Source of the DNA: Gemmatimonadota bacterium
GTDB lineage: Bacteria > Gemmatimonadota > Gemmatimonadetes > Longimicrobiales > Gaopeijiaceae
Direction of reading: 5' to 3'
Assembly (NCBI GenBank): GCA_022826565.1
Contig: JAJDUP010000033.1
Coordinates: 62,001-126,000 of the forward strand
DNA: 64,000 nucleotides
This document shows positions 18,906 through 59,712 of this stretch, in pieces (positions within the stretch are counted from its first letter, which is position 1; each line of letters begins with the position of its first letter). The notes below the pieces were generated by a model. The model was not told the origin of the DNA. It saw only the letters and a program-made list of their open reading frames with translations, and ran no database searches. The position numbers were made by a program, and so were the translations under genes.

Positions 18906-18944
18906 CGTAAAGTAAACATGACATTCTGTAATGTTTAGATTACA
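18906..18944. repeat. AT-rich motif, copy 1 (imperfect inverted repeat between convergent genes)
   Basis: CGTAAAG, six bases, TGACA, TTC, TGTAATG. The centre CATGACA-TTC-TGTAATG is dyad-symmetric at 6 of 7 positions per arm, and symmetry extends partly outward (11 of 14). It lies between the ends of the aquaporin gene (+) and the rhodanese gene (-), in a 128-base gap. The sequence stands out as AT-rich. Related copies lie at 31189, 45194 and 59388. Confidence 0.6.
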
Positions 18945-18956
18945 AACAGTGCGACG

Positions 18957-19595
18957 CTACCACACCGTTTCGTAGCCGTCAGCGGCAAGATTCCAGCGGC
19001 GGCCGTAGACGTGCAGCCGTTTGGTGGGCATTCCCTCGTGAACCAGCGGCCCACCGGCGTGCGTCCACGCGAGCACGCTGCCCTCGAGGTTGAGCACGTC
19101 GACCCCGCGCCTGCCCATCTCGCGGGCGTAGGACGAACTGCGAGCCCCGATCGTGCAGTAGACCACCACGGTCCGGTTCGCCAGTTCGGCGAGGCGCCGC
19201 TCGAATTCGCTGGCCGGAATCGCCCCGGGCAGAGTCGAGACGCGCCGCTCCCGCTCGGTCCGCACGTCCACCAGAACGAAGTCGCCCCCGGGGAGCGCTT
19301 CGCGGAACTCCGCGGCAGAGATCGTCGCGACATCGGGGTGGTCTTCGCGAATCTCCTCGATCATGCGCTCCATGATCTGGCGCCGTCCCGCCTCCGTGTC
19401 ACGGGACTGGGCAGCGACCGGGCCGAGAGGGAACAGCAGGGCGAGGGCGAGGGCCACGGCGGGAGCCATCACGGCGCGGAGGGCGGACACGGCGGGGAGG
19501 GCGGCCACGCCGGGCGAGCCGGCAACACCGAACGGGGAGCGTCCCCGCGCGCGCGCCGTCAACCCTGCGAACACGCATACGCGCCGGTCAAACAT
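18957..19595 (-). CDS. Exported rhodanese-domain protein
   Basis: Single rhodanese domain that would carry a persulfide on its active Cys. The domain spans about residues 90-190: FVLVDVRTERERRV, then the active loop VVVYCTIGARSSSY with Cys147. It is preceded by a hydrophobic signal segment (MAPAVALALALLFPLGPVAAQ), so it likely works in the periplasm. The ATG at 19595 overlaps the stop of the upstream persulfide-dioxygenase gene by 8 bases, suggesting coupling; an internal ATG at 19469 would place the signal peptide right at the N-terminus and is a real alternative. Its job is probably to pass sulfur to or from the same pathway as its neighbour. Confidence 0.85.
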   Translation of the reverse strand: MFDRRVCVFAGLTARARGRSPFGVAGSPGVAALPAVSALRAVMAPAVALALALLFPLGPVAAQSRDTEAGRRQIMERMIEEIREDHPDVATISAAEFREALPGGDFVLVDVRTERERRVSTLPGAIPASEFERRLAELANRTVVVYCTIGARSSSYAREMGRRGVDVLNLEGSVLAWTHAGGPLVHEGMPTKRLHVYGRRWNLAADGYETVW

Positions 19596-21003
19596 GGGTG
19601 TACGCCCCGCGGAAGATGTCGTTGACGGCGGTGACCCGGAATCCCTCCCGCTCGAGCAGGGACGCGGCGGCCGAGGCGCGCGCGCCGCTCAGGCAGTGCA
19701 CCATCAGGTCGCGGCCCCTTGGAAGCTCGCCCAGGCGCGCGGCCAGGCGGGTGTGGGCGATGTTGCACGCACCCTCGACGCGCGCCTCCGCGAATTCCGT
19801 GGCGCGCCGGACGTCGAGCACCAGCGTATCCGGGTCGGCGCGCCGCGCGTCGACCTCGTCGAAGTCGACCACCTCGATCCCGGCTGTCTCGCCTCCCGCA
19901 TCGCGGAATGCTGCCAGCTCCGTGGCCGGCGCCCACCCCACCAACCGATCGAGCCCGATGCGCACAAGATCGCGCACCGCTTCCTCCACCTCCGACTCGC
20001 CGCACACGAGCACGATCTCGGAAGCCGGGTCGACGTAGCAGCCGGCGATGGTGGGAAAGGAATTGTTGAGGGGGGCGTAGATCGAGCCGCGGATGTGGTC
20101 GGCGTAGTAGCCCAGGCGGTCGGCCCTGGTGTCGATGACGACCGCCCGAGGATTGCGGGCGAACGCCGCCAGCTCGCCCCCCGGCATGCGCGGCGGCCGG
20201 GGCAGAGGCCCGAGCACCGCGGGACCGCGCCGATTCTCGGCCTTCATGCGCCCGAAGTAGAGCGGAGGCTCCGGCTGGCCCTCGAGGATGTATTCCACGA
20301 ACGCGTCCTCTCCAGCCTGCACCGCGGCCAGCGCCGGGCTGAAACGCTTCTCGTACCCGGCGGTCGTGTCGGGGACGGCCCCCAATGCCTTGCCGCAGGC
20401 ACTCCCGGCACCGTGTCCCGGCCAGATGCGCAGGTAGTCGGGCAGCTCGAAGACCTCGCGCGCGGAGCCGTACAGGCGCCGGGCCGAAGGCTCCATCGCC
20501 CCCGCGTGCCCCGCTGCCGACTCAAGGAGGTCCGGGCGCCCCAGGTCCCCCACGAAGATGAAGTCGCCCGAAACCATCCCCATCGGCTCGGTGGCACCCG
20601 CACCCCGGTCGGTGATCAGGAAGCTGATGTGCTCGGGGGTGTGGCCCGGGGTGTGGATCGCCTCGAAGTCGATCCCGCCCAGGGTGAAGTGGTCGCCGTG
20701 TCGCAGCAGCGTGACCGAATCCCGTCCGGCAGCCCATTCATACTGCCAATCCGGCCCGCCCTCGGCCGAGAGAAACGCGCGGCAACCGTACCGTTCGACC
20801 AGCTCCAGACAACCCGACACGAAGTCCGCATGGATGTGCGTCTCCGCCGCCGCGACGATGCGCAGCCCCTCCCGGCGCGCCATCGCCACATAGCGGTCGA
20901 CATCCCGCTCGGGGTCGATGATGATCGCCTGCCGCGTCCGCTGGCACCCCACCAGGTACGCATGCTGCGCCAGCTTCGGATCGACGATCTGCCTGAAGAA
21001 CAT
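19588..21003 (-). CDS. Persulfide dioxygenase-like protein with two rhodanese domains (CstB type)
   Basis: Metallo-beta-lactamase-fold enzyme of sulfide/persulfide detoxification. The N-terminal ~250 residues hold the iron-site motif ETHIHADFVSG, then HTPGHTPEHISF, and FVGDLGRPDLL, typical of ETHE1/CstB persulfide dioxygenases (the family more often has HxHADH; here HIHADF). Two rhodanese domains follow: the first has the active-site-like CGESEVEEA, the second VHCLSGARASAAASLL. It is 471 residues long with GGAG just before the ATG. Known relatives oxidise low-molecular-weight persulfides to sulfite or thiosulfate. A periplasmic rhodanese gene overlaps its end. Confidence 0.9.
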   Translation of the reverse strand: MFFRQIVDPKLAQHAYLVGCQRTRQAIIIDPERDVDRYVAMARREGLRIVAAAETHIHADFVSGCLELVERYGCRAFLSAEGGPDWQYEWAAGRDSVTLLRHGDHFTLGGIDFEAIHTPGHTPEHISFLITDRGAGATEPMGMVSGDFIFVGDLGRPDLLESAAGHAGAMEPSARRLYGSAREVFELPDYLRIWPGHGAGSACGKALGAVPDTTAGYEKRFSPALAAVQAGEDAFVEYILEGQPEPPLYFGRMKAENRRGPAVLGPLPRPPRMPGGELAAFARNPRAVVIDTRADRLGYYADHIRGSIYAPLNNSFPTIAGCYVDPASEIVLVCGESEVEEAVRDLVRIGLDRLVGWAPATELAAFRDAGGETAGIEVVDFDEVDARRADPDTLVLDVRRATEFAEARVEGACNIAHTRLAARLGELPRGRDLMVHCLSGARASAAASLLEREGFRVTAVNDIFRGAYTHV

Positions 21004-21118
21004 ATGGACTCCCTAACGCAACGGGTCCGCCGTCTGTCAACGAATTCGAACGGGCAAAGCTAATCGACGCTCCCGATCAATGCACTCAATTCACACAAAA
21101 GCCAACGGAGAAAAACCG

Positions 21119-21664
21119 ATGAATACCGTATCCGGAAAGTACACCCTTGCAACCTCCGGGCTGACACTGGCCCTGGCCATGGTCGCGAGCACGACAGGTC
21201 TTCAGGCACAGCGCCAGGGCGCCGGGGGACGACCCGCGGTAGCCGGCGCGGCGGTGGAGAGGACCATCCGCCTCGCCGATGAACTCGAACTGACCGCCGA
21301 GCAGAGGACGCGGTTGGAAGCGATCCGGCTGGAACTCCTCGAACAGCGCATCGAACAGACCACGGCGATGCTGGCACTCCGCTCGGAGGTAGCAGCCGGG
21401 ATTCGCGAGCCGGAGGCCGTGCGCGGGGTGATGGCCGAGCGTTTGCGGGCGGCGCGGGCCGCTGGCGAGTCCGTGCGCGACCGCGTGGGCGAGATCCTCA
21501 CCGACGAGCAACAGCAGGAACTCCGCAGCATGAGCCGCCGGGCGATGTGGCGCCAGCGCGGCATGCGCGGACGGTCGAGGGTCGAGGGGCAGCGGGGCTG
21601 GCGGGGTGGCCGGGGGTTCGACCGCGATCGCGGCCGGGGCGGACAGCGCGGACGCGGCCGGTAA
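21119..21664 (+). CDS. Spy/CpxP-like periplasmic LTxxQ protein
   Basis: Small helical periplasmic protein. After a signal peptide (TSGLTLALAMVASTTGLQAQ) come long charged helices with the LTxxQ-type signatures LTAEQRTRLEAIR and LTDEQQQELRSM found in Spy/CpxP chaperones and metal-binding CnrX relatives. The last ~35 residues are an Arg/Gly-rich tail (GRGGQRGRGR at the end). The ATG at 21119 is preceded by GGAG. The length is 181 residues. Chaperone or metal-sensing activity is inferred from the family; the RG-rich tail is unusual for Spy and would make the tail strongly basic. Confidence 0.8.
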   Translation: MNTVSGKYTLATSGLTLALAMVASTTGLQAQRQGAGGRPAVAGAAVERTIRLADELELTAEQRTRLEAIRLELLEQRIEQTTAMLALRSEVAAGIREPEAVRGVMAERLRAARAAGESVRDRVGEILTDEQQQELRSMSRRAMWRQRGMRGRSRVEGQRGWRGGRGFDRDRGRGGQRGRGR

Positions 21665-21776
21665 TCCGCTGGTCGGAGGCCGGGCGCGGGTGTAGCTTGC
21701 TGCCTCACACCCGCGCCCGGCCGGGCCCGGTACAGGACGCCGAGTTCAGCCGCAGGCAGCACAGCGAGGCAGCCCC

Positions 21777-22505
21777 ATGAGAAGCAGCACTTTCGAATCG
21801 ACAGTCTCGGCCCTGATCGCGCTGGCCGTGTTTGCGGTCGCCGCCTGCGGTGGTCAGCCTGACACCGGTGCGGCCGACGGAGCGGAGGCGGGCGCGGAGC
21901 AGGAATCCCCCGCGCAGGCCATGGCCGCCGAAGGCGAACAAGGCGCCGAACCGAGCGCGATGGAGGGCGGCGAGCACGGTGGTGAAGTTGAGGGAGGGGA
22001 GGGCGGCGAGACCGATGAAGGCGGCGATGGCCATGAGGCCGGCGAGCATGACGAAGGCGGGGAGCACGGCGAGGAGGGGGAGCATGGTGAGCGCGGCGAG
22101 GGTGCGGAGCATGGCGAGGGTGGCGAGCGCGGCGAGCACGACGAGGGCGGCGAGCACGGCGCGCGCGGTGAGCACGGCGAGGGTGAGCACGGCGAAGAGG
22201 GCGAGGAGTCGGGCGAATACCTGAGCCGCGCGGAGAGCTGGGATGCGACGCGGCGCGGGATCCGGCTGCGACTCATCTTCGATGCCGAACGCGACGCCTT
22301 CGTGGGAACGGCCGAGAACACCACCGACGGGGCGGTGTGCGCGGTGCGGGTGGAGGTCCACCTCCGGCCCGGCCCCGAACTCGGCCCGACGGAACGCCGG
22401 GATCTCGCCCCGGGTGAGTCCACTGCCGTGGAGTTGGCGGCCGGCGGCCAGAGCTTCGAGGAATGGACTGCCCACCCGGAGACCTCGGCCTGCGAGGCCA
22501 CCTGA
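21777..22505 (+). CDS. Lipoprotein with a Gly/Glu/His-rich repeat region
   Basis: 242-residue lipoprotein: the signal peptide ends in the lipobox VAAC (FAVAACGGQP), so the Cys near residue 24 is lipid-modified. Residues ~60-150 are low-complexity repeats built from G-G-E-H, E-H-G-E and similar units, with a dozen or more His and many Glu. The C-terminal ~90 residues form a compact domain (LRLIFDAERDAFVGTAENT, then VRVEVHLRPG and LAPGEST) resembling FxLYD-type beta-sandwich domains that bind or scaffold at the cell surface. The His/Glu spacing suggests metal binding (Zn, Ni or Cu), but this is inference. It is downstream of the Spy-like gene on the same strand, 112 bases away. Confidence 0.82.
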   Translation: MRSSTFESTVSALIALAVFAVAACGGQPDTGAADGAEAGAEQESPAQAMAAEGEQGAEPSAMEGGEHGGEVEGGEGGETDEGGDGHEAGEHDEGGEHGEEGEHGERGEGAEHGEGGERGEHDEGGEHGARGEHGEGEHGEEGEESGEYLSRAESWDATRRGIRLRLIFDAERDAFVGTAENTTDGAVCAVRVEVHLRPGPELGPTERRDLAPGESTAVELAAGGQSFEEWTAHPETSACEAT

Positions 22506-22566
22506 GCGACAATCGACATCCCCGAGGGGGTCGCGACGGGCCGAGGGGGTCGCGGGGCCACCGCAT

Positions 22567-22586
22567 CGACCCTCCGGAGGGTGTCG
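22567..22586. terminator. Hairpin after the His-rich lipoprotein gene
   Basis: ACCCTCCGGAGGGT is a perfect palindrome (5-base arms with a CCGG loop). It lies 60 bases after the lipoprotein stop, in sequence that also holds two copies of CCGAGGGGGTCGCG (within 22518-22555). No T-run follows directly. Confidence 0.4.
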
Positions 22587-22604
22587 CTCCAGGCCCGGCA
22601 ACAA

Positions 22605-22610
22605 TATACT
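22605..22610 (+). promoter_or_regulatory. Candidate -10 element of tRNA-Lys(CTT)
   Basis: TATACT ends 14 bases before the first base of the tRNA, with a T-run just before the gene. No convincing -35 hexamer is seen at the usual distance. Confidence 0.4.
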
Positions 22611-22624
22611 TCAGTCCGTTTTTC

Positions 22625-22697
22625 GCCCTGCTAGCTCAACTGGTAGAGCATCCGACTCTTAATCGGCAGGTTCGGGGTTCGAGTCCCTGGCGGGGCA
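22625..22697 (+). tRNA. tRNA-Lys (anticodon CTT)
   Basis: A 73-base cloverleaf: acceptor GCCCTGC/GCGGGGC, D arm GCTC/GAGC, anticodon loop CTCTTAA (anticodon CTT, codon AAG), T arm CGGGG-TTCGAGT-CCCTG. Pair 27-43 is a mismatch, which is tolerated. CCA is not encoded. The gene ends 5 bases before the end of the convergent manA-type gene. Confidence 0.95.
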
Positions 22698-22701
22698 CTC
22701 T

Positions 22702-28540: not shown

Positions 28541-31193
28541 GGCTCCGTTCTCTCCGTTGAAGAAAGCTCCCCGGCTTTCGTCCATCTTGGGCCCGGCCGG
28601 GCCGGCGGGCAAACGACAGCCACCGGCCGGTCGCCTGTGGGTCTGGCCGCTGCCGTGCGCGCCGCTGCTGCTCTGCGTGCCGCTGGCCGCCTGCGGCGAG
28701 CCGGCGTCCACGGCCGGCGACGCGGCGGGCCCCGATATCCGGGAGACTGCAGGCGTCGACGCCCGGCCGGCGGGCCGCGCCGAGGTGCTGCGCTACGCCA
28801 GCCTGCGGGGCAACATCCGCGGCGAGCTGCACATGCTCCCCCCGGTCAGCACCGGGCCGATGAGCCCCGCGTGGTCCCCCGACGGCAACTGGATCGCCTT
28901 TGCGATGGCGGGCGACATCTGGCGGATTCCTGCGGGCGGCGGCGCGGCCGAGCAGCTGACGCGCGGCCCGTGGTACCACTTCGAGCCGAGCTGGAGCCCG
29001 GACGGAGGGCGCATCGTGATGACGGTGGAAACGGGAGACGGGCTGGACATCGCGCTGCTGGACGTGGAGGGGGGCGAGGTCACCTCGCTCGTGGAGGGCG
29101 GCGGGGTGGACGTGCAGCCGTCGTGGAGCCCCGACGGAAGCTACGTGTACTTCGCCACGGCCGGCCGCGGCATGGACATTCACCGCATCGAGGTGGCCAC
29201 CGGCACTCGCGAGGTGGTGATCGACGGGCCGGGCAGCGAGTACCAGCCGCGCATCTCACGCCAGGGCGTGCTGGTCTACATGGCCCCGTCGCCGGGCATG
29301 GTCGGCAGCGGAGCGATCTGGACGCTGGCGCTGGACGGCGGCCCGGGGGCGGGGGTGGAGCCGGGGCTCGCACGGGCGGAAGAGACCGCCTACAGGGCCC
29401 GCCCCGACTGGCTGCCCGACGGCAGCGGCCTGGTCTACGTGTCCGATGACGCGGGCTCCAACGACCTGGTGTTGATCGCCGCGGACGGAGGCAACCCGCT
29501 CCGCCTGACCGGCGGGCTCAGCCACGAACTCACGCCGCGCGTCAGTCCGGACGGCGCGGAGATCGCCTTCGTGTCCAACGAAGACGGGCCCACGGAACTG
29601 CATGTCATGGCGGTCTCCGGAGGCGCGCGGGGGTCATGGCGGACGCTCGATGTGAGCGACCGCGCGCACGCCGCACCCGTTGGGACGCTACGCGGTACGG
29701 TGCTCGACGAGACCGGGCGCCCGACGTCCGCCCGCGTCACGGTAGCCGCGGCGGATGGCCGTGGCTACGCACCGCGCGGGGGCTTTCACCGTGTGCTGTC
29801 GCCGACCGAGACGCACTACTTCCGGACCAACGGCGCCTTCGAGGTCGAGGTGCCCGCGGGCGAGGCCACGGTGACCGTGCGGCGGGGCCTGGAGTACCGG
29901 CCGATCGAGATGACGGTGAGGGTGCCCGCGGGGGGATTCGCCGAGACACGCTTCGGACTGGCTCGCCTCGTCGACGCGGCCGCCATGGGCTGGCATTCGG
30001 GGGACACGCACGTTCACGACCTTCACCAGGGACGCTACGGCCTCACACACGCCGATTTCTTCAACGACCTCGTCAGCGAGGACCTGAGGGTGTCGATCGC
30101 ACTCATCCACATGGACGGGACGCGGCTCATGGGGCGTTGGGACGACCTCACAGGACACCCGCATCCCCTTTCCACAGATGACCACATCCTGCAGTACGCT
30201 CAGGAATTCCGGGGATCGTTCGGCCACGTGGGCCTGGCAGGCATCCGGGAGTTCATCACACCGCTGGTGGGTGGTGCCGGCGGCACCGCGTTTTCCGCAG
30301 ACGTACTCAACGCCGACTACCTCCTGGCCGCCCGCGAACAGGGCGGCACGGGCGGCTTCATGCACCCGTTCACCGGCTCCGTGGCCACGCCCGAGGCCGT
30401 GAGCGCCTCGGAGATCCCGGTGGACGTCGCGCTCGGCGCGGGCGACTTCTACGACGTGATCTGTTTCTGGTACGACGAACTCGCCAACGCAGAGATCTAC
30501 TACCGCCTGCTGAACGCGGGCTTCCGCATCGCCGCGACCGGGGGCACGGACAACTTCTCGGACGTGTGGCGGGATCCGGGGCCGGGCGCGAGCCGCACCT
30601 ACGCCCGTGTCCATGGTGAGCTTTCGGTGGATTCGTGGCTGGAGGCAGTGCGGGAACGGCGCACCTTTGCCACGAACGGACCGCTGCTGTTCCTGGCGGT
30701 CGACGGCGTGGAGCCCGGCGGCGAGATACGCGTGCCGGACGGGGATGGCGGCGAGCGCGCGGTGGAGGTGGAGGTCGCGTCCAACAGCCCGCTGGATGCG
30801 GTCGAGATCGTGGTCAACGGCGCCGTCGTCGCGACCCACGACGTGGACGGGATGGGCGAGCGCTTCCGTGTAGAGAGCGCGGTCGCGCTGGACGGAAGCG
30901 GCTGGATCGCGGCGCGTGCGCTGGGGCCGGCATCGCCCCTGGTCGCCGACAGCTACGCCTTCGCTCAGACCAGCCCGGTGTGGGTGGTCGCCGGTGAGCG
31001 AGAGTACCGGTCCGCCGAGGACATCCGCTTCCTGCTTGCGGCCGTGGAGGCGTTCCGCGTGCGGGTCGTGGTGCGCGACCGCTGGGTCACCGCCGGGGAT
31101 CGCGAACAGTTGCTGGCGCGGGTGGACGAAGCGGCGGAAGTTTACCGCGAACTGCTTCGCGAGGGGGAGACGGCTGGCAGTCCCGAAATGTAA
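28539..31193 (+). CDS. CehA/McbA-type PHP metallohydrolase lipoprotein with TolB-like propeller
   Basis: Large secreted or lipid-anchored enzyme. The signal segment PLPCAPLLLCVPLAAC ends in a lipobox Cys. Residues ~90-380 form a TolB/PD40 beta-propeller (repeated WSPDG..IAF and WLPDGSGLVYVSDDAGSND). A carboxypeptidase-regulatory-type beta domain follows (LRGTVLDETGRPTSARV). The last ~400 residues are a CehA/McbA-family PHP domain beginning at WHSGDTHVHDLHQG (metal His/Asp) and ending with RTFATNGPLLFL. Family members hydrolyse ester or amide bonds of carbamates or peptides. The start is uncertain: ATG 28539 shares CATG with the divergent S9 gene and leaves a long n-region before the lipobox; a later TTG (about residue 18) is possible. 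Confidence 0.8.
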   Translation: MAPFSPLKKAPRLSSILGPAGPAGKRQPPAGRLWVWPLPCAPLLLCVPLAACGEPASTAGDAAGPDIRETAGVDARPAGRAEVLRYASLRGNIRGELHMLPPVSTGPMSPAWSPDGNWIAFAMAGDIWRIPAGGGAAEQLTRGPWYHFEPSWSPDGGRIVMTVETGDGLDIALLDVEGGEVTSLVEGGGVDVQPSWSPDGSYVYFATAGRGMDIHRIEVATGTREVVIDGPGSEYQPRISRQGVLVYMAPSPGMVGSGAIWTLALDGGPGAGVEPGLARAEETAYRARPDWLPDGSGLVYVSDDAGSNDLVLIAADGGNPLRLTGGLSHELTPRVSPDGAEIAFVSNEDGPTELHVMAVSGGARGSWRTLDVSDRAHAAPVGTLRGTVLDETGRPTSARVTVAAADGRGYAPRGGFHRVLSPTETHYFRTNGAFEVEVPAGEATVTVRRGLEYRPIEMTVRVPAGGFAETRFGLARLVDAAAMGWHSGDTHVHDLHQGRYGLTHADFFNDLVSEDLRVSIALIHMDGTRLMGRWDDLTGHPHPLSTDDHILQYAQEFRGSFGHVGLAGIREFITPLVGGAGGTAFSADVLNADYLLAAREQGGTGGFMHPFTGSVATPEAVSASEIPVDVALGAGDFYDVICFWYDELANAEIYYRLLNAGFRIAATGGTDNFSDVWRDPGPGASRTYARVHGELSVDSWLEAVRERRTFATNGPLLFLAVDGVEPGGEIRVPDGDGGERAVEVEVASNSPLDAVEIVVNGAVVATHDVDGMGERFRVESAVALDGSGWIAARALGPASPLVADSYAFAQTSPVWVVAGEREYRSAEDIRFLLAAVEAFRVRVVVRDRWVTAGDREQLLARVDEAAEVYRELLREGETAGSPEM

Positions 31194-31223
31194 AGTAGAC
31201 TTTACAAACTGTAATGTCTACTT
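31189..31223. repeat. AT-rich motif, copy 2: near-perfect inverted repeat between two convergent stop codons
   Basis: TGTAAAG, six bases, TTACA, AAC, TGTAATG. The arms 31193-31206 and 31210-31223 pair at 13 of 14 positions around the 3-base centre AAC. The stop TAA of the PHP lipoprotein gene (31191-31193) and the stop of the convergent permease gene (TAA on the minus strand, 31222-31224) lie inside or at the edges of the repeat, so it fills the whole intergenic gap. It may be a bidirectional terminator or a protein-binding site. Confidence 0.7.
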
Positions 31224-33498
31224 ACCGTCCTGCCTTCGCCAGAATGGACGACTCGGGTAGCATCGACGCCGCGCGGCGGTGGCTGATCATCAGCAGCGGG
31301 CAATCGGTCGACCGGGCGATCGTCAGCATGCGGGTGCTGAATACGGCGCGGCGGCGGCCGGTGCGGTGGAACCCAAGGATGAGCAGATCGGTGTCCGGGG
31401 TGCGGCGCGATACTTCGCTCACGAGATCATCGCCGATCGCCAGTTCGGCATGGGCATCCCCGCCGACCTCGTCCCAGGCCAGCCTCTCCAGGTCACGCTG
31501 CGCCCGGCGGTGCATCGCCTGGCCCGCCTTCTCCGAGAGCACGCCCAGGAAGGTGATGTCGCGTGTCGCTTCGCGGGCGAGGCTGCCCAGGAGCCGGGCC
31601 CGCACCGGACTCTGATCACGGCCGCCCCGCGACGGCACCAGGATTCGTCGTGCCTGGGCGGGTGTCCATTCGGCGGGCGCCCTTAGGATCACCACATCGG
31701 CGTCGACGGCCCCGATCAGTCCGGCCAGCGGCCCGGTCATGAGGGTATCGTCCAGCTGGCCCACCCCAAGCAGCAGGCTCTCGCAGCGGGTCGACTCGGC
31801 CACCCGCGCGATCTCGCCCCAGGGGTCGGCGTGCAGAGTGATCAGCGCCTCGGGACGCAGATCGACCTTCAACGCCGTCCCCAGCGCGCCCCCCAGGACC
31901 GCCTGGGCATCGCGGACGCCCTGCGGCAGCCCCTCGTCGGGACTGCGGCGCGGCGGCCCCACCACCGACAGCAGCTGCACGCGCGACACCTCGGGCGGCG
32001 CGAGCGCCCTGGCCATGGTGACCATCGTCTCGGCGCTCGCCGGATTGGCGATGGGCACAAGCACCACCGGACGGCGGCCCCTCAGCTTCATCATCTGGGG
32101 ATCGCGCGCCTCGGACGACGCATCGACCGCCCGGGCCCTGGGCGCCAGATACAGCGAATACAACACCGCGCCCACGCCGAGCCACAGGGCCCCCAGGACG
32201 CCGGCCGGAGGCACAGCGACGGCCTGGTAGAGTCCGATGGCGACGCAGGCCGACCCGCCGACCACCGGAATCAGCGGGAACAACGGCGTGCGGAACCCCG
32301 GAGGTTCCCCTGCCCGCCTGCGCGCCAGATAGCCGATCAGGTGGGTCAGCGCGAAGGAGGCCAGGAAGATCAGGCTGGCCACCGCGCCGGCGGACGCGAC
32401 ATCCGGCACCGCGATCACGAGGAAGGCGATCACGATGGCGCTGAAACGCACCGCTGCGGTGGGCGTTCCGGTACCGGGAGCCAGCGCGGCGAACCGTGTG
32501 GGGAGTGTGCGGTCCGCCCCCATCGTCTTCGCGAAGCGCGACGCGGCAAGCAGATTGGCCTGGAGCGCCGATAGCATCGACAGCAACCCCGCCGCGACCA
32601 CGAGCCAGTAGCCGGCAGAACCCATGAAGTTGCGAACGGCCACGGCCACCAGAATCTCCGGATTCTCGGCGGCTGCCTCTACCACCGGCCGGTCCGGGAA
32701 TCCCACCGCGACGATCAGGAAGAGCAAAGGCATGTAGATGACAAGCGCCGTCCCCAGCGACAGGAACATCGCCCGCGGCACGTTGCGTTTCGGATCGCGC
32801 ACCTCGCCGCCGACCGCGGCGATCAGGTCGAAACCCTGCAGCGCGATGAAGGTGTACCCCATTGCCTGCGCCAGTCCGGGCAGGCCGTCGGAGAAGAACG
32901 GCCGGAAGCGGGCACCCAGCGCCCCCGGGGCCGGCGCCTCTGAAGCAAGCGCCAGAAAACCCGCGACGATCAGGACTGCAAAGACGACGACCTTGCCGAC
33001 GGTCTCCCACTGCCCGGGGCCGCCGGCCGCACGCGTCAGGCGCCACTTGTAGAACCCGACGGCCGCGAGCGCGTATGCGACCAGCGCCAGCCGCGACCCG
33101 ATCCACTCCGGAACCTCGCCATTCGCCAGCAGCGCGATCTGCTCCGCGAACGGCACCAGGAACACCGCGAAGCCCATCGCGTAGAGGACGGCCGCAACGA
33201 CCGAGGCGAACCACACCACCCACCCCACCCCGAAGGCCGCCTCCACCGTGAGGACGTTGCGCGCGTAGGTGTACGTCCCGCCGGACTGCGGGAACCGCGC
33301 CGCGAGTTCGGCGAACGAGTACACCGTGATCATCGCGATGCACCCGTTGAGCGCGAACGCCAGGATCGCACTGGGGCCCGTCGTCTCGAACGCGACGCCC
33401 GCAAGCGCGAGGATCCCGCCCCCGACGATCGCGCCCACTCCGACGCCGGTGGCGCCGAGGAGGCCGAGGGAGCGCTCCGGCTGAGTGGAAGCCGTCAC
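31222..33498 (-). CDS. APC-family amino acid permease fused to two universal-stress (Usp) domains
   Basis: Secondary transporter of amino acids or amines. The N-terminal ~460 residues have about 12 hydrophobic segments beginning with GATGVGVGAIVGGGILALAG, the APC-superfamily entry motif; ARFPQSGGTYTYAR and the helix GLAQAMGYTFIALQGFD are also typical. The C-terminal ~270 residues contain two UspA-like domains (RPVVLVPIANPASAETMVTM and RRILVPSRGGRDQSPV, the second closing with TDLLILGFHRTGR), which probably bind ATP or another nucleotide. The start is GTG with GAGGGGAG upstream. Fusion of APC transporters with Usp domains occurs in several phyla. Given the surrounding peptidases, uptake of amino acids from digested peptides is plausible. 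Confidence 0.88.
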   Translation of the reverse strand: MTASTQPERSLGLLGATGVGVGAIVGGGILALAGVAFETTGPSAILAFALNGCIAMITVYSFAELAARFPQSGGTYTYARNVLTVEAAFGVGWVVWFASVVAAVLYAMGFAVFLVPFAEQIALLANGEVPEWIGSRLALVAYALAAVGFYKWRLTRAAGGPGQWETVGKVVVFAVLIVAGFLALASEAPAPGALGARFRPFFSDGLPGLAQAMGYTFIALQGFDLIAAVGGEVRDPKRNVPRAMFLSLGTALVIYMPLLFLIVAVGFPDRPVVEAAAENPEILVAVAVRNFMGSAGYWLVVAAGLLSMLSALQANLLAASRFAKTMGADRTLPTRFAALAPGTGTPTAAVRFSAIVIAFLVIAVPDVASAGAVASLIFLASFALTHLIGYLARRRAGEPPGFRTPLFPLIPVVGGSACVAIGLYQAVAVPPAGVLGALWLGVGAVLYSLYLAPRARAVDASSEARDPQMMKLRGRRPVVLVPIANPASAETMVTMARALAPPEVSRVQLLSVVGPPRRSPDEGLPQGVRDAQAVLGGALGTALKVDLRPEALITLHADPWGEIARVAESTRCESLLLGVGQLDDTLMTGPLAGLIGAVDADVVILRAPAEWTPAQARRILVPSRGGRDQSPVRARLLGSLAREATRDITFLGVLSEKAGQAMHRRAQRDLERLAWDEVGGDAHAELAIGDDLVSEVSRRTPDTDLLILGFHRTGRRRAVFSTRMLTIARSTDCPLLMISHRRAASMLPESSILAKAGR

Positions 33499-43586: not shown

Positions 43587-45209
43587 CTACCGCCTCGCAA
43601 AGGTCCCCAGCCCGCCGAAATCAAGCGTGCCCACGACGCCGTCCGCTCCCAGCGTGAAGGTCGCGAACATCTCCCCGTTGGCCGGGTTGTCCGGGACCAT
43701 CCGGAACACGTCGTAGTGCCAGTGTTCGAGGCGGCCCGTCGTTTTGCCGCCGAGGCTGAGTCGAAGGCCATCGTCTCCATGCAGGATGTCTACTGCCCCG
43801 TGATACTGCTCTTCGTAGGTGCCCGCATACTCGGGCAGCGGCCGTGACGGCGAGGTGCCGCTCGCCCGGTTTGCCGCCAGCTCGCGACGGGCCTCGGCCT
43901 GCCGGGCCTCGCCCTCTCTCATCTCGGCGAGCATCAGGGTGCTCCAATCGGCCGCATCGGCGCCCGCGCCACCGTCCAGGAAATGGTCGAACACCCGGTA
44001 CATCAGCGCCACGATCAGGTTGTTTGGGCGCGCGTTGGAGAGCGCGACCATGCCGATCCCCTCTTCCGGCATGAAGGCAACGTGTGCGCGCATCCCGTCA
44101 ATGCCGCCGCCGTGGTCGACCACCTTTCGCCCGCGGTAGTCGAGCACCCACCACGCAAGCGCGTAGGCGTTGAAGTTCATGACCGCATCGCGCGAGTGGA
44201 GGCGGTTCTCCGGCGCATCGGCCTGGATCGCCATCTGCGGGTAGTGCATCTCGGCCATCGTGCCGTCGCTGACGAGGCGCTGTCCCTCGTGGACGCCGCT
44301 CTCCAGGTGCAGGGCCACCCAGCGCGCCATCTGCGAGGCGCTGGAATAGATCGAGCCCGCTGGCCCGACGTTGTCGATGTTCTTGTGCGGCACGGGCGTC
44401 GGAACACCGTCCACCGGGACGTGCGGCGACGCGACGTTGTCGAGGCGGGGCAGCTCGGTCACCGAGGTGACGCTCCGAGTCATGCCCAGCGGCGCGAAGA
44501 TGCGCTCGGCGACGAAGTCGTCCCAGCTCTTTCCCGAGGCGGCGCGCACCACTTCACCAGCGGTCAGGAACATCAGGTTCTGGTACTGCCAGGCACCCCG
44601 GAAACTGCGCGTGGGCTTCAGGTAGCGGACGCGGCGGATGATCTCGCGGCGATCGTGCGGCCACCGGGACCAGACCGCGTCACCGCGCGCGAGGCCGCTC
44701 CGGTGGGTGAGCAGGTCGCGGACCGTCAGTTCCCGGGTCGCGTATGCGTCGTACATCTCGAACCACGGCATGTGATCGATGACGCGGTCGTCCCAGCGAA
44801 CGCGCCCCTCGTCGACGAGTATCCCGAGCGCGGCCGAGGTGAAGGCCTTCGAGGTGGACCCGACCGCGAAGAGGGTGTGTTGGTCGACCGGCTCGCCGGT
44901 CGTCACGTCGCGTACACCGTAGCCGCGCTCGTAGGCGGTGCGCCCATCGTGGACGATCGCGATGGCCAGACCCGGAACCTGCCACGCCTCCATCGCCGCT
45001 GTGATGTAGTCGTCGAGGCCGGTGAGGGGAGCGGGCTGGGCGGCCACCGTGGCCGGGCCGGGAGCGGACAGGAAAGCCATCGCGGCCAGAACCACGGACC
45101 CGGCCGCGCGCGCCGTAAAGCGCAGCACCTCGGCCACGCGGGTGGCCAGCGCGTTTCTCACGCGCGACCCACTCACCGAGAAAGTAATATGCGCATTACA
45201 TTTTGTCAT
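43587..45209 (-). CDS. Exported serine hydrolase, paralogue of the downstream gene
   Basis: 540 residues from ATG 45209. Motifs match the neighbour: GSTSKAFTSAALG (SxxK), YQNLMFLTAGEVV (YxN) and DHGGGIDGMRAHVAF (HGGG third motif), and a DUF3471-type C-terminus (LPEYAGTYEEQYHGAVDIL). A signal-like segment (AAGSVVLAAMAFLSAPGPATVAA) occurs some way in. The ATG lies inside an AT-rich motif (copy 3 at 45194-45221), so a later start is likely: a GTG at 45176 or 45161 would shorten the n-region and leave the AT-rich motif upstream as a promoter or operator. Substrate unknown; esterase or aminopeptidase of a D- or acylated substrate is typical. Confidence 0.86.
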   Translation of the reverse strand: MTKCNAHITFSVSGSRVRNALATRVAEVLRFTARAAGSVVLAAMAFLSAPGPATVAAQPAPLTGLDDYITAAMEAWQVPGLAIAIVHDGRTAYERGYGVRDVTTGEPVDQHTLFAVGSTSKAFTSAALGILVDEGRVRWDDRVIDHMPWFEMYDAYATRELTVRDLLTHRSGLARGDAVWSRWPHDRREIIRRVRYLKPTRSFRGAWQYQNLMFLTAGEVVRAASGKSWDDFVAERIFAPLGMTRSVTSVTELPRLDNVASPHVPVDGVPTPVPHKNIDNVGPAGSIYSSASQMARWVALHLESGVHEGQRLVSDGTMAEMHYPQMAIQADAPENRLHSRDAVMNFNAYALAWWVLDYRGRKVVDHGGGIDGMRAHVAFMPEEGIGMVALSNARPNNLIVALMYRVFDHFLDGGAGADAADWSTLMLAEMREGEARQAEARRELAANRASGTSPSRPLPEYAGTYEEQYHGAVDILHGDDGLRLSLGGKTTGRLEHWHYDVFRMVPDNPANGEMFATFTLGADGVVGTLDFGGLGTFARR

Positions 45210-45221
45210 GTTTTGTTTACA
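45194..45221 (-). repeat. AT-rich motif, copy 3 (before the serine hydrolase gene)
   Basis: On the minus strand: TGTAAAC, six bases, TGACA, AAA, TGTAATG. The core CATGACA-N3-TGTAATG is identical to copy 1 apart from the 3-base spacer. It also contains ATGACA and, 17 bases on, TACTTT (45181-45186), so it could act as a promoter for the serine-hydrolase pair. Confidence 0.6.
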
Positions 45222-45284
45222 TTTCTGTTTCGTCCAGTGGCCGTTGCGACACCGGCGCCGCCCCAGTGAGGCGCCGGACGCCCC

Positions 45285-46446: not shown

Positions 46447-46519
<73 letters not shown>

Positions 46520-55520: not shown

Positions 55521-55766
55521 ATGAAAGCCATCACACTCCGCAACGTGCCGCCCGATCTCGCCGAGGCCCTCGAGCGGGAAAAGCGGCGCCGTGGCCAGTC
55601 CTTGAACCGCACCGCGATCGAGCTGCTGAAACAGGGCCTGGGCGTGGGTTCCCCCCGCTCCAATGGCCTGGGTCGTATGGCGGGCGGATGGAGCGAGGAA
55701 GACGCCCGGGAGTTGGAACGCGTGCTGGCCCCGTTCGGAGAGATCGACCCCGAGATGTGGAAGTGA
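55521..55766 (+). CDS. VapB/FitA-like antitoxin (ribbon-helix-helix)
   Basis: 81-residue DNA-binding antitoxin. The N-terminal MKAITLRNVPPDLAEALER..QSLNRTAIELLKQGL is a FitA-type ribbon-helix-helix: a short strand and two helices that dimerise and bind the operator. The C-terminal ~35 residues (LGRMAGGWSEEDARELERVL) would wrap the toxin. The ATG has GGAG 6 bases upstream. The toxin starts inside its stop (GTGA overlap). The pair would regulate its own promoter. Confidence 0.9.
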   Translation: MKAITLRNVPPDLAEALEREKRRRGQSLNRTAIELLKQGLGVGSPRSNGLGRMAGGWSEEDARELERVLAPFGEIDPEMWK

Positions 55767-56200
55767 GCCGCTACTGCCTCGACACCTCGGCATACATCGA
55801 GTTTCTCCGCGACGAGCCGCGCGCGGTCGCGGCGATCGACGGCGCGAGCTGGATCGGTTTTCCGACGATCGCATTGGGAGAGTTGTACACCGGATTCTCG
55901 CTGCGCCGAAAGAACCACGAGCAGGAAGCGGCACGCCTCCGGGATTTCCTCGCGCACCCGGTCGTCGAGGCGATCCCGGTCGACGATCAGGTCGCCCACG
56001 AATACGGACAACTGGTCGCGGAACTGAGACGGGCCGGCACACCGCTGCCCGCCAACGACATCTGGATCGCGGCGTGCGCCGCCCGCACCTCGAGCGTCGT
56101 GCTGACCCGCGATGCCCGCTTCACGCGAATCGCGCGGGTCGGGTGCGTGGTGCTACGCCCGGGGCCGCTCACCTCCCCGCGCTACAAGAGCGTTGAATAG
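55763..56200 (+). CDS. VapC-family PIN-domain toxin
   Basis: Metal-dependent ribonuclease that, when free of antitoxin, cuts tRNA or rRNA and stops growth. The PIN acids are visible: LDTSAYIEFL (first Asp), LGELYTGFSLRRK (Glu), PANDIWIAACA (third Asp) and LTRDARF (fourth Asp). The start is GTG at 55763, in a GTGA overlap with the antitoxin stop, giving 145 residues. The last 48 bases overlap the 3' end of the convergent M14 peptidase gene. Confidence 0.92.
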   Translation: MSRYCLDTSAYIEFLRDEPRAVAAIDGASWIGFPTIALGELYTGFSLRRKNHEQEAARLRDFLAHPVVEAIPVDDQVAHEYGQLVAELRRAGTPLPANDIWIAACAARTSSVVLTRDARFTRIARVGCVVLRPGPLTSPRYKSVE

Positions 56201-58771
56201 GAGCTTGAAGGTCCCGTGCGTCTGCGCGCGGTGCTGGGCGCGGAAGCCGATCATGACGATCGTGCCGTCGCCGTGGTCGACCGAGACCATCGCCGCCTTG
56301 TTGGCGATCGCTTCCTCGCCGAGGAGCCAGCCGCTCTGCAGGATGTCGCGGTCGATGTAGGTGACGACGCGCCGCACGTCGCTGCTGCGCGCGCCGGGAA
56401 GCGTCTCGTAGACCTGGCCGCCCGCGAGGTAGGCCGCGAGGGCGCGGTCGGGCATGCCGTAGCCGAAGGGGCTCGAGGTGTCGACATCGACCTTCAGCGT
56501 CGAGCCGGGGGCCCAGAACTCGTTGCCCCACATGCCGGCCACGGCGTTGCGCACGGGTACGTCGAACTCGTCGAGGACCAGTTCGCCCGCCTGGGCGAAG
56601 GTGACCAGGGTGCCGCCGTTCTTCACGAAGGCGTCCAGCGCGGCGACGCCCTCCTCGCCGAACCCGCTCCGGTACTCGGGCGGCGTGCCCGCCGGATCCG
56701 GGCCGCGCGGGCCTCCGGCGCCCTGGATCGGGCCGAGCATCATCTGCTTCGCGTCGTTGGGGAGGATGATCACGTCCCAGCGCTCGTGCAGGTCGCCCGC
56801 CAGGATTTCCGGGTCGAAGAGGCTGGTGTACTCGAAGCCGAAGTCTTCCAGCAGCCAGCGCGTCCACCCTTCGTCCATGTTGCCGTTGTAGTAGCGCTGG
56901 TACATACCGATGCGCTGCCGCGTGACGGGGTGGCTGATGGCGGAGGCGTCGCCGTCGAGCGCGGCGAAGTCGACTCCGGTGGCCGCGGCGATTTCGGCGA
57001 GCGCGTCGGCGCCCGCGCCGGATTCGACCACGAAATCGCCGCGCTTCGCCCCCGCGCCGTCCTGCGTGACGCGCCGTACCGGGGCGTCGGCCGTGAAGAG
57101 GTGGTTGACCGCCTTGAATGCGTCGTTGAGGGTGCCGTCGATCCGGTAGCCATGCGGCGCTGAGGCGGCGACGACTCCCGCAGGCTCGATCGGGCCGGAT
57201 ACCGCCGTCAGGTCCGCCTCCACCGCTGTGCCGACGGGGTCGACCCTCACCCCCATGAACTCCGCGATCACATCGGCCGACATGTCGTAGGGGCGGATCG
57301 GGTCGCCGGACGCGGTGCGGGTGTAGCTGTTGTCCGGGTAGTACGTCTGGCCCAGGAGCCAGCGGATGACCCCGCGCTTGGGCTGCGCGAGCGACACCAC
57401 GTAGCTGCCTTCGGCGTAGACGCGGCCCTCGTGGGTGAAGGCGGTGGGCGCGCGCTCGACCGTGATGCCCTGCAGGAGCAGCTTGTCGACCATCTTGGTC
57501 ATGGTTAGGGGGTCGTGCTGCGTGGCGGGGATCACGTAGGCCTTGACGTCGCCCTCGAGCCCGCGCTGGATCTGGCGGCTCGACTTGTTGTACGCGTTGC
57601 GCAGCACGGTCTCGCGGTTCCTGGCGGCGATCTCGAGCGGCGAGAAGGTCGCCACGATCTGCCGCTCGACGATGTCGCGCACGCGCCACCAGCCGCCGGG
57701 CCACGGGTTCGGGAAGGTCGTCTGGGCCTCGTATTCGGGAAGCTGGCGCGAGCCCTGCAGCTGGTCCGGGTGCACGTAGAGCGGCGTCGCGAGGCGGGCG
57801 CTGGCCGATTCGGTGAGCATGCCGGCGATGTTGTGGAACGGGGTGATCCAGTGGAAGCCGAAGTGCCCCCAGCCCGAGTAGATCGCCGCGTTGACGGTGC
57901 CCTGGAAGCCGGCTTCCTCCATGCGGTAGGCCATGTGCGCGCCGTACCACGACATCTCGCGCCAGACGAGCGGGTCGCCCCCGGGACGGATCGGCTCGGC
58001 GTAGGGCGGCAGGTAGATGCGTGCAGTGAACGGTCCCATCTGGTGGTGGTCGATGAACGCCTGCGGGATCCACTCGCGGAACAGGATCTCGCCGCCGTAG
58101 CGCGACTCGACCGTGTTCTGCATGAAGGCGTCGCGGTTGTTGTCGTGCCCGATGTAGTGGTGGTATAGCTCGGGCGGGCTCGCGCCCTCGTACTCGGTGC
58201 CGACCCAGCGGTCGTACCACTCGTTGACGATGCCCACGCCGTCCGGATTGAAGGCCGGGATAAAGATCGAGATGGTGTTGTCGAGGATCTCGTGGATCTC
58301 GTCGTCATCGCGGGTGGCGAAGAGGTACATGACCTCGGCGGGCGTCTGGCTGCAGGCGACCTCGGTGGAGTGCAGCGCGTAGGATTGGACGAAGACGACC
58401 TTGCTGTTCGCGATCGCGTCGTCGATCTCGGCCTGGGTGTGCCCGCGGGGGTCCTGCAGGACGGCGTTCATGCGCTTGAAGTCGTCGAGGCGCGCGAGGT
58501 TGGCGGGCGACGAGACGAAGATCGAGAGGAAGGGCTCGCCGAGGGTGGATGGGCCCATGTTGACGACCTGGACGCGGTCGCTGGCGGCGTCGATGAGCTC
58601 GTAGTACTCGACCAGCTGGTCCCAGTGGGCAAGCTTGCGGTCGGCGCCCATCTGGTGGCCGAAGAAGTCTTCGGGGGAGGGGATCTGGGGGGCAGCGGGG
58701 GCCGGGGCCGCGAGGGCGAGGGTGAGGACGAATGCGATGCCGGTGAGGGTGTGACGGTTCGGTCGAGTCAT
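56153..58771 (-). CDS. Exported M14-family zinc carboxypeptidase
   Basis: Large zinc peptidase of the M14 family. A signal peptide (GIAFVLTLALAAPAPAAP) precedes the catalytic domain, which has the zinc motif HSTE in QSYALHSTEVACSQ, then NTISIFIPAFNPDGVGIVNEW (NxDG substrate region). The C-terminal half (residues ~500-870) is an additional region containing Asp/Glu/Gly-rich stretches (PNDAKQMMLGPIQG, FGEEGVAALDAFVKNGGTLV) that resembles a glutamine-amidotransferase-like or ThuA fold. The ATG at 58771 gives 872 residues. It likely trims peptides outside the cell. Overlaps the VapC tail by 48 bases. Confidence 0.9.
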   Translation of the reverse strand: MTRPNRHTLTGIAFVLTLALAAPAPAAPQIPSPEDFFGHQMGADRKLAHWDQLVEYYELIDAASDRVQVVNMGPSTLGEPFLSIFVSSPANLARLDDFKRMNAVLQDPRGHTQAEIDDAIANSKVVFVQSYALHSTEVACSQTPAEVMYLFATRDDDEIHEILDNTISIFIPAFNPDGVGIVNEWYDRWVGTEYEGASPPELYHHYIGHDNNRDAFMQNTVESRYGGEILFREWIPQAFIDHHQMGPFTARIYLPPYAEPIRPGGDPLVWREMSWYGAHMAYRMEEAGFQGTVNAAIYSGWGHFGFHWITPFHNIAGMLTESASARLATPLYVHPDQLQGSRQLPEYEAQTTFPNPWPGGWWRVRDIVERQIVATFSPLEIAARNRETVLRNAYNKSSRQIQRGLEGDVKAYVIPATQHDPLTMTKMVDKLLLQGITVERAPTAFTHEGRVYAEGSYVVSLAQPKRGVIRWLLGQTYYPDNSYTRTASGDPIRPYDMSADVIAEFMGVRVDPVGTAVEADLTAVSGPIEPAGVVAASAPHGYRIDGTLNDAFKAVNHLFTADAPVRRVTQDGAGAKRGDFVVESGAGADALAEIAAATGVDFAALDGDASAISHPVTRQRIGMYQRYYNGNMDEGWTRWLLEDFGFEYTSLFDPEILAGDLHERWDVIILPNDAKQMMLGPIQGAGGPRGPDPAGTPPEYRSGFGEEGVAALDAFVKNGGTLVTFAQAGELVLDEFDVPVRNAVAGMWGNEFWAPGSTLKVDVDTSSPFGYGMPDRALAAYLAGGQVYETLPGARSSDVRRVVTYIDRDILQSGWLLGEEAIANKAAMVSVDHGDGTIVMIGFRAQHRAQTHGTFKLLFNALVARGGERPRA

Positions 58772-58857
58772 GGGATGCTGTCCGTGCATGGCGTTTGGGA
58801 ATCGGGACCGATGGAATCTGGGGGGAAACGGGCGATTGTGCGCAAGCTTGTTCTCCG

Positions 58858-59712
58858 TTACCGCCCCGCCGCCGCCCTCCCCGCCGTCGCGGCGGCCGCA
58901 TCGCTGACGATGAACATCCGGAAGCCCTGCTCGATGCGCTCGGCGATGTCGTCCACGCCGGCGGTGATGCCGCACGGCACCTCGTGGGCCTGGCAGGAGG
59001 CGAGGATGGTCTGGATTGCGGCCTCCACCGCATCCATGTCGCCCTCGTAGGATCGGCGCAGGTCGCCCGGGCCCGCGAAGACCACGCTGACGCCCTCCGT
59101 GCCCATGATCTCGTCGACCGCTTCGACGCCGCTCCGGTCCTCGACGATGAGGATGCTGAAGAGCGAGCCCGACGGATCGCCGGGCCAGTGGTCGTCGCCC
59201 ATCGCGGCAACGGCGGCGGCCGCGTCTTCGGCCGACTCCACATGCGGGAAGACGATCGCGCGCACGCCCGCGCCCAGCGCTTCGGCGACATTCGCCTGCG
59301 CCGCTTCGACGCCGTTGCGGATCGGCGGGATGCGCAGGACCAGGGGATGAGGCGGCTCGGTTCCGGAGCCCTCCACGATCCCCTCCATGTAAACTTTAGT
59401 TGTCATTATGTCAAATGGACCTGACTCCAGGGAGTAGAACACGAAGTCGAGTTCGCGGTTCTGGCCCATGAGCGCGCCCTGCTCGCGGGTGGTCGGTCCC
59501 GGGAAGATGCCGAAGGCGGGCTCGCCGGCGGCGATCAGGTTGACCACGGCGGACGGGCTGGGCTGGGCGGATACGGTTGCGGCTGCATCCGCGGCGGCAC
59601 CCGGATCGGGCTCCTCGCTCTGTTCGGGGGTGGAGCATGCGGCGGCCGTCAGGGCCGCGGCGACGGTTGTCATCAGAGCGAAGAGCGAAGTGCGTGACTG
59701 CGTGCGGGGCAT
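58858..59712 (-). CDS. HpcH/HpaI aldolase-fold protein with a lipoprotein signal
   Basis: 284 residues from ATG 59712. The N-terminus is a lipoprotein signal peptide (LFALMTTVAAALTAAACSTPEQ) with the lipobox TAAAC, followed by an Asp/Ala-rich linker. The rest matches the HpcH/HpaI aldolase/citrate-lyase fold: LVLRIPPIRNG (catalytic-type Arg), IVFPHVESAEDA, ILIVEDRSGVEAVDEI (metal Glu), and FAGPGDLRRSYEGD (metal Asp). Known members are cytoplasmic class II aldolases that cleave 2-keto-3-deoxy acids; an exported, lipid-anchored version is unusual. It contains the in-gene AT-rich motif copy 4. It lies 86 bases upstream of the M14 gene. Confidence 0.82.
   Translation of the reverse strand: MPRTQSRTSLFALMTTVAAALTAAACSTPEQSEEPDPGAAADAAATVSAQPSPSAVVNLIAAGEPAFGIFPGPTTREQGALMGQNRELDFVFYSLESGPFDIMTTKVYMEGIVEGSGTEPPHPLVLRIPPIRNGVEAAQANVAEALGAGVRAIVFPHVESAEDAAAAVAAMGDDHWPGDPSGSLFSILIVEDRSGVEAVDEIMGTEGVSVVFAGPGDLRRSYEGDMDAVEAAIQTILASCQAHEVPCGITAGVDDIAERIEQGFRMFIVSDAAAATAGRAAAGR
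59388..59413. repeat. AT-rich motif, copy 4, inside the aldolase-fold gene
   Basis: TGTAAAC, six bases, TGTCA, TTA, TGTCA: same spacing as copies 1-3 but with a diverged right half. It lies in the coding sequence (minus strand reads DIMTTKVYM) and stands out because it uses several AT-rich codons (ATA, ATG, ACA, ACT, AAA, GTT) in a gene that otherwise uses GC-ending codons. Confidence 0.4.

What the first reader, a model, noticed from the sequence alone, without database searches (positions are those of the whole stretch)
18906..59413. A short AT-rich motif recurs at four places with fixed internal spacing
Four copies (18906, 31189, 45194 minus strand, 59388) share the layout GTAAA-C/G, six bases, TGACA-like, three bases, TGTAA-like. 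Copies 1 and 3 have an identical core (CATGACA, 3 bases, TGTAATG). All are AT-rich islands in this GC-rich DNA, at different kinds of place: two between convergent genes, one at a gene start, one inside a gene. I did not recognise them as a known operator or repeat family. They could be binding sites of an unnamed regulator, promoters (copies 1, 3 and 4 have a TGACA-type -35 with an AT-rich hexamer 17 bases on), weak terminators, or traces of a small repeat.
Basis: seen in the sequence. Interest (0 to 1): 0.72.

Follow-up and report, generated by a model that had tools for sequence, protein, structure and literature searches.

The report
Genus-specific dispersed protein-binding palindrome
A 43-base DNA palindrome with fixed internal spacing is scattered, mostly just past the ends of genes, through the chromosomes of one bacterial genus, where it is likely the landing site of a still unidentified DNA-binding protein predicted to help organise the chromosome.

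Summary
Confirmed, and larger than reported. The four copies belong to one 43-bp palindrome with four TGTAATG-type half-sites at 11-10-11 bp spacing. The home genome has 96 places at <=3 mismatches, reversed control 0. The core occurs 16-223 times in 22 of 23 congeneric genomes (reversed control 0-2); the full pattern occurs 0-1 times in 36 genomes of other genera. In 1.24 Mb of the home genome, 38 of 44 sites are intergenic; convergent gaps are enriched (15 vs 5.9 expected), divergent gaps depleted (5 vs 11.6). Arms do not covary, so it is not a hairpin. Solo sites are not recognisable copies of one another. In seven orthologous pairs specified bases changed about five times less than spacer bases. 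This fits a two-dimer protein site outside promoters; promoter and terminator readings are disfavoured. 4 of 44 home sites and 36 of 137 others carry at least one arm of a ~240-bp MITE-like repeat, a plausible, unproven source of sites. Phyletic tests argue against ArgR, TyrR-type HTH, an extra ParB (Noc) and RAYT. The partner protein and the function are unknown.

The parts
18904..18946 (.). site 1, near-perfect palindrome, between a + strand MIP (aquaporin-type) gene and a - strand rhodanese-domain gene
   Evidence: 63.1 bits; convergent; neighbours
31187..31229 (.). site 2, right outer half-site 1 bp closer than standard; between a + strand PD40/WD40-like propeller gene and a - strand amino-acid permease/Usp gene
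   Evidence: only hit in the home genome of the 1-bp-shorter pattern; 42.3 bits; neighbours
45181..45223 (.). site 3, between two - strand beta-lactamase-fold genes: centre 40 bp upstream of one start and 83 bp past the other's stop
   Evidence: (53.2 bits); neighbours
59386..59428 (.). site 4, degenerate (right outer half-site TGAC, left inner half-site poor), inside a - strand HpcH/HpaI aldolase-like gene (58858-59673)
   Evidence: (31.2 bits)
10195..10271 (+). right-arm remnant of the MITE-like element that carries the palindrome elsewhere; no core detectable here
   Evidence: nhmmer 31.6 bits, E 5.2e-8; best core score nearby -39.1

Best explanation
The four copies are members of a 43-bp site, AATGTAAWGNNNACATTACATNATGTAATGTNNNCWTTACATT, that is likely bound cooperatively by two dimers of one sequence-specific protein and predicted to serve as a chromosome-organising anchor rather than a promoter operator. 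Shown: the site, its fixed four-half-site geometry, its restriction to one genus in the collections searched, its 3'-end and convergent bias, and fewer changes at its specified bases than at its spacers between close species. Inferred: a single protein, dimer-of-dimers occupancy on one face of the helix, and an architectural role. Untested: the identity of the protein and any binding. New sites may be seeded by a MITE-like element carrying the same palindrome, whose arms would then decay while the palindrome is kept; this is inferred only from arm-bearing and solo sites coexisting.
For: 96 places at <=3 mismatches in the home genome, control 0. Core in 22 of 23 congeners, 16-223 matches against reversed control 0-2; the 23rd, G009, has 1. 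Full pattern 0-1 in 36 genomes of other genera. One exact pattern over the GTDB species collection: 104 of 106 stretches in Gemmatimonadota-labelled records. Outer half-sites 35 of 48 exact at the standard offset, 1 at -1, 0 at the other seven offsets. 57.8 bits over 49 columns, nearly all in the central 43 (38 sites). Arms pair no better than shuffled, 76.0% vs 76.8%. 34 solo sites hardly more alike at spacer positions than shuffled columns, 7.47 vs 7.36 of 15. Seven orthologous pairs: 5 of 154 specified bases changed vs 17 of 105 spacer bases. 38 of 44 sites intergenic (gaps are 11% of sequence; P 1.6e-30), convergent 15 vs 5.9 (P 3e-4), divergent 5 vs 11.6 (P 0.011). In other genomes 127 3' ends and 55 5' ends lie within 150 bp of 137 unique sites. 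Neighbouring genes diverse, no regulon seen by eye.
Against: No binding protein identified. Spacing along the complete chromosome G059 is random (mean 46.3 kb, sd 45.2 kb over 97 of 98 listed places), with no macrodomain; 23 of 97 lie within 0.75 Mb of parS against 32.5 expected (my count), the opposite of sites that avoid the terminus. Positions turn over fast: 4 of 4 shared where both flanking genes are >=86% identical, 0 of 8 (7 loci) at lower identity, odd for essential architecture. Constraint is clear against spacers but not against flanks: over all 16 gap-free pairs, repeat-element copies included, specified bases differ 23 of 352 (6.5%), spacers 58 of 240, flanks 488 of 6797 (7.2%). 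Mean spacer similarity of solo sites is slightly above shuffles (P 0.025). PWM and gene calls are mine; location statistics use 28% of the home genome.
Confidence: 0.5

Rival explanations
1. A purely mobile repeat (REP- or MITE-like) with no host role; the palindrome is conserved because a transposition enzyme needs it.
For: 4 of 44 home sites and 36 of 137 unique sites elsewhere (19 of the 36 with both arms) carry arms of a ~240-bp element with inverted ends; about 203 copies of that element's end in G059, reversed control 7; copy number varies 1 to 223 per species; three tandem 249-bp copies in G059; over all pairs specified bases change at about the flank rate.
Against: 40 of 44 home sites have no arm trace; solo sites are hardly more alike than column shuffles; in seven orthologous pairs specified bases changed 5 of 154 against 17 of 105 spacers; arms also exist without a detectable palindrome; no Y1/RAYT transposase in 23 of 23 congeners; the exact pattern has no hit in the viral collection.
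Confidence: 0.2
2. Classical operators of a global transcription regulator acting at promoters.
For: Two 18-bp boxes 3 bp apart resemble cooperative repressor operators (ArgR, TyrR; recalled); site 3 and others lie 5' of genes.
Against: Divergent gaps depleted, convergent gaps enriched, 12 of the 16 measurable tandem-gap sites (of 18) nearer the upstream gene's stop, P 0.038; neighbours share no function seen by eye; sites not shared at the more diverged loci.
Confidence: 0.15
3. Two-way roadblock or insulator that stops RNA polymerase between converging genes.
For: Convergent enrichment; intrinsic-terminator signals are at shuffle level in this genome, 11 of 978 ends vs 13 of 978 shuffled, so other ways of ending transcripts would be needed; a bound LacI can block RNA polymerase in E. 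coli (PMC4132739, abstract start seen in a listing).
Against: Only 45 of 978 gene ends have a site; copies also sit between genes that look co-transcribed (pstA/pstC-like, MoxR/DUF58-like; named by eye).
Confidence: 0.13
4. Promoters or intrinsic terminators, or chance.
For: TGACA-like and AT-rich hexamers occur within the palindrome.
Against: Convergent location, no covariation, no significant terminator association, zero in shuffles for the full pattern and PWM.
Confidence: 0.02

Closest known systems
Chromosome-dispersed sites of nucleoid-occlusion proteins (Noc NBS, SlmA SBS)
   Same: Sequence-specific sites scattered round the chromosome (PMC4331003, PMC7468209: abstract starts seen in a listing); palindromic and not tied to a regulon (recalled).
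   Different: Site is ~43 bp with four half-sites; 21 of 23 congeners have a single ParB-family match; no terminus depletion seen on G059; one genus only.
REP/BIME repeats with RAYT transposases
   Same: Usually over 100 extragenic palindromes per genome, species-specific (PMC2817692, abstract read).
   Different: Arms do not covary, solo copies not alike, no Y1 transposase in 23 congeners.
MITEs carrying protein-binding sites (Correia-type name recalled)
   Same: A ~240-bp inverted-ended repeat carries the palindrome; small mobile repeats with an IHF site are described (PMC2229807, abstract start seen in a listing).
   Different: Most sampled home sites (40 of 44) are without repeat arms.
ArgR and TyrR operators
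   Same: Two 18-bp palindromic boxes 3 bp apart (ArgR layout) of TGTAAWN6WTTACA type (TyrR sequence); both recalled.
   Different: ArgR has no match in G010, which has 178 sites, and is present in genera with none; HTH_50 does not follow the sites.

Membership tests
REP/BIME (RAYT-mobilised) | high copy number, extragenic palindrome | tested here: met
   (copy number below 100 in many congeners)
REP/BIME (RAYT-mobilised) | stem-forming palindrome (arms co-vary) | tested here: not met
   76.0% paired vs 76.8% shuffled, 50 sites
REP/BIME (RAYT-mobilised) | cognate RAYT (Y1_Tnp) gene in genome | tested here: not met
   0 of 23 congeners; 7 of 14 order-level genomes have one
MITE | inverted terminal repeats and conserved interior | tested here: inconclusive
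   arms at 4 of 44 home sites and 36 of 137 elsewhere, none at the rest; target duplication not tested
ArgR operator | two 18-bp boxes 3 bp apart (recalled) | tested here: met
   layout
ArgR operator | ArgR presence follows site presence | tested here: not met
   ArgR in 39 of 40 genomes, no match in G010 (96% complete; 178 sites), present in G009 (0 sites)
TyrR box | TyrR-type HTH (PF18024) follows site presence | tested here: not met
   no match at E 0.001 in G021 or G003 although both have sites (G009 has none either); matches in genera without sites; model is short and most hits are below its cut-off
Noc (ParB-like) binding sites | extra ParB-family paralog | tested here: not met
   one match in 21 of 23 congeners (G009 included), two in G014 and G016; the single ParB itself is not excluded as binder
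Noc/SlmA binding sites | depletion around replication terminus (recalled) | tested here: inconclusive
   one chromosome; 5 sites in the 248-kb bin opposite parS against a mean of 5.4, 2 in the bin holding parS; terminus only inferred as the opposite point
SlmA (TetR family) binding sites | dedicated TetR-family protein | not tested
   no search spent on TetR
promoter operator regulon | sites concentrated upstream of genes | tested here: not met

The most novel reading that the evidence does not exclude
A genus-private chromosome-organising system: an undescribed DNA-binding protein clamps the chromosome at tens to hundreds of four-half-site palindromes that are born inside MITEs and outlive them, with the protein's specificity drifting between species of the same genus.
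Probability: 0.3. Interest if true: 0.8.

Novelty: new variant of a known kind. Interest (0 to 1): 0.6.

Why it matters
Dispersed architectural sites are known for few proteins, mostly in model bacteria (recalled). Here a long site with strict geometry appears in a single genus at up to about 80 core matches per Mb (G010), with one congener that has essentially none. That is a natural presence/absence experiment for finding the protein, and a possible case of a mobile repeat supplying its binding sites. A full-text search of the held open-access papers for Gemmatimonadota with palindromic, binding sites and intergenic returned no paper, and a term search of one paper on the Palauibacterales, an order of the same phylum, found none of six terms for repeats or binding sites in its main text.

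Tried and rejected
ArgR (from the 18-3-18 layout): argued against by phyletic pattern. TyrR-type HTH_50: not tracking sites. Extra ParB (Noc): one ParB match in 21 of 23 congeners. RAYT/Y1 transposase: none in 23 congeners. Regular spacing and macrodomain ideas: spacing random on a complete chromosome. RNA or ssDNA hairpin: no covariation. Substitute for intrinsic terminators: no significant association. Autoregulated partner gene: the first 70 residues of 112 5'-neighbour proteins read by eye; a Fur-like and an XRE-like gene lie near home sites (the Fur-like one also in the closest species), but no regulator recurs more widely in this sample. The MITE end search in G059 led to inserted DNA inside one copy's palindrome; it looks like an ordinary insertion in AT-rich DNA and was dropped. 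A mistyped pattern (spacer 1 bp short) found only window site 2 and serves as a spacing control.

Full report
What was checked. They continue with a further outer half-site, TTAC in copies 1 and 3, TTAC one base closer in copy 2 and TGAC in copy 4, so the unit is a palindrome GTAAN6CATKACAN3TGTMATGN6TTAC. At <=3 mismatches this finds copies 1, 2 and 3 in the window and none in 100 shuffles; copy 4 (6 mismatches, my count) is a degenerate member by PWM (31.2 bits), and its inner word alone is not beyond chance.

Genome scale. The home genome (4.39 Mb, 61 contigs) has 96 places at <=3 mismatches, the reversed pattern 0. A PWM from the 50 sites listed there was run on 1.24 Mb of the same genome: 44 separate sites score 18 or more, while order-2 Markov sequence never reached 4. 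The PWM was trained partly on the same sequence; the independent support is the reversed-pattern control, 0 in each of 59 genomes. Information totals 57.8 bits over 49 columns for 38 sites scoring 28 or more, nearly all in the central 43; flanks outside carry at most 0.33 bits a column in 15 sites.

Geometry. The site is two 18-bp boxes TGTAATGN4CATTACA in a 21-bp repeat, i.e. four half-sites 11, 10 and 11 bp apart with alternating direction. Of 48 outer half-sites around 24 inner cores, 35 are exact GTAA/TTAC at the standard offset, 1 at -1 (window site 2) and 0 at the other seven offsets from -4 to +4; 22 of the 24 cores have both outer halves and 2 have one, allowing one mismatch. This is what two cooperating dimers on one face of the helix would need (inference).

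Protein site, not hairpin. On 50 sites the two arms pair in 76.0% of cells against 76.8% when the 3' letters are dealt anew. So the symmetry is per half-site. These 50 are the best matches listed, out of 96.

Not recognisable copies of each other. For 34 home sites scoring 28 or more and without repeat arms, pairwise identity at the 15 spacer positions averages 7.47 against 7.36 for column shuffles (P 0.025 for the mean; excess of very similar pairs not significant; 200 shuffles).

Constraint. In seven orthologous pairs with close species (local identity 91.8-96.3%) 5 of 154 specified bases changed against 17 of 105 spacer bases. The seven were picked by me as syntenic. Over all 16 gap-free pairs of that call, nine of them copies of the repeat element at different places, the figures are 23 of 352 specified, 58 of 240 spacer and 488 of 6797 flank positions; 14 further lines with a gap in the site were dropped by the script. 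So the specified bases are well below the spacers but, over all pairs, close to the flank rate (flanks include coding sequence).

Where the sites lie. With my own gene calls, 38 of 44 are intergenic although gaps of 45 bp or more are 11% of the sequence; convergent gaps have 15 (5.9 expected), tandem 18 (20.5), divergent 5 (11.6); of 16 measurable sites in tandem gaps 12 are nearer the upstream gene's stop (P 0.038). In other genomes, 127 gene 3' ends and 55 5' ends lie within 150 bp of 137 unique sites scoring 25 or more (117 of them in stretches fetched by an exact pattern, 20 in G059 loci). Neighbours are functionally diverse by eye. On the complete chromosome G059 (OX639991.1; by length and count apparently the same as G021) spacing is random, with 23 of 97 sites within 0.75 Mb of parS where 32.5 would be expected (my count).

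Who has it. The inner core occurs 16-223 times in 22 of 23 congeneric genomes and once in G009; the reversed control gives 0-2. The full pattern gives 0-1 in 36 genomes of other genera of the family and order. A scan of the GTDB species collection with one exact pattern gave 106 stretches, 104 in records labelled Gemmatimonadetes, Gemmatimonadota or Longimicrobiales; the other two are one Pseudomonadota and one Zixiibacteriota bin. An exact pattern cannot see drifted versions. That many of these bins come from sponges is recalled from their names. The viral collection has no exact match.

Mobile repeat. Some sites share ~240 bp: inverted ends CTAGCAGYCCGTGGA and conserved arms with the palindrome inside. 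At least one arm is found at 4 of 44 home sites and 36 of 137 others, 19 of these with both arms. Control flanks 700 bp away gave 0. In one search three sets of shifted home flanks gave one hit below E 0.01, about 5.3 kb from a site and next to the arm-bearing site C39:229224. Arms without a detectable palindrome exist too, one in the window. About 203 copies of the end sequence occur in G059, reversed control 7. I infer that this repeat can deliver the palindrome, and that solo sites are either old deliveries or independent.

Turnover. Among 12 syntenic pairs between other genomes and the home sample (both flanking genes >=60% identical), 4 of 4 sites are shared where both genes are >=86% identical and 0 of 8 below; two of the 8 are the same home locus (which listed 17 pairs; 5 had lower identity and look paralogous).

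Partner protein. Tested by phyletic pattern: ArgR, TyrR-type HTH, ParB family and Y1 transposase. None follows the sites. G010, with the most core matches, has no ArgR match. Each genome's single ParB is not excluded as a binder; only an extra, Noc-like paralog is unsupported. TetR and other families were not profiled. The partner is unknown and I claim only its existence, as likely.

Verdict. A real, genus-restricted, four-half-site protein-binding palindrome, likely for a chromosome-organising protein (about 0.5 for that role; the protein-site part is nearer 0.85). Shown: sequence, geometry, distribution, location, and fewer changes at specified than at spacer bases. Inferred: two-dimer binding, architecture, MITE seeding. 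Not tested: any binding.

Noticed in passing
window 15844-16231 (-), 15654-15727 (-), 22625-22697 (+), 46447-46519 (-): RNase P RNA (class A) and three tRNA genes.
   Followed up: no
G059 1-4472315 (loci L299-L328): About 203 copies of the MITE end AGCAGYCCGTGGAYARA (<=2 mismatches, reversed control 7; about 100 listed), among them inverted pairs 29-65, 157, ~232, 328 and 405 bp apart: a family of composite small repeats; no Y1 transposase in the genus.
   Followed up: partly
L313 1490-3017 and L314 1-1560: One MITE copy's palindrome is split by inserted DNA flanked by the 5-bp direct repeat TTAAC, with ends like CCCCCCTTATTCACGAATG; read by eye.
   Followed up: partly
L215 1488-2023: Three tandem 249-bp repeat units, each with a palindrome, between two genes that look like pstA and pstC by eye; pairs of sites 249 bp apart also in G012 and L204.
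   Followed up: no
home genome sample, 978 gene ends: Intrinsic-terminator-like signals are no more common than in shuffled flanks (11 vs 13 of 978), so this lineage may rely little on them.
   Followed up: partly
L157 2111-2147 and L128 746-782: Single high-scoring sites in a Zixiibacteriota bin (47% GC, 60.4 bits) and a Pseudomonadota-labelled bin (65% GC, 51.2 bits): mis-binning, chance or transfer not resolved.
   Followed up: no
window 59386-59428: Site 4 lies just upstream of the part of an HpcH/HpaI-like gene that matches Pfam from profile position 62 on; the N-terminal third does not match, so the site may mark a disturbed gene start.
   Followed up: no
G009: A genome placed in the same genus with 1 core match, no full-pattern site and a weaker ArgR match: the natural negative control.
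   Followed up: no
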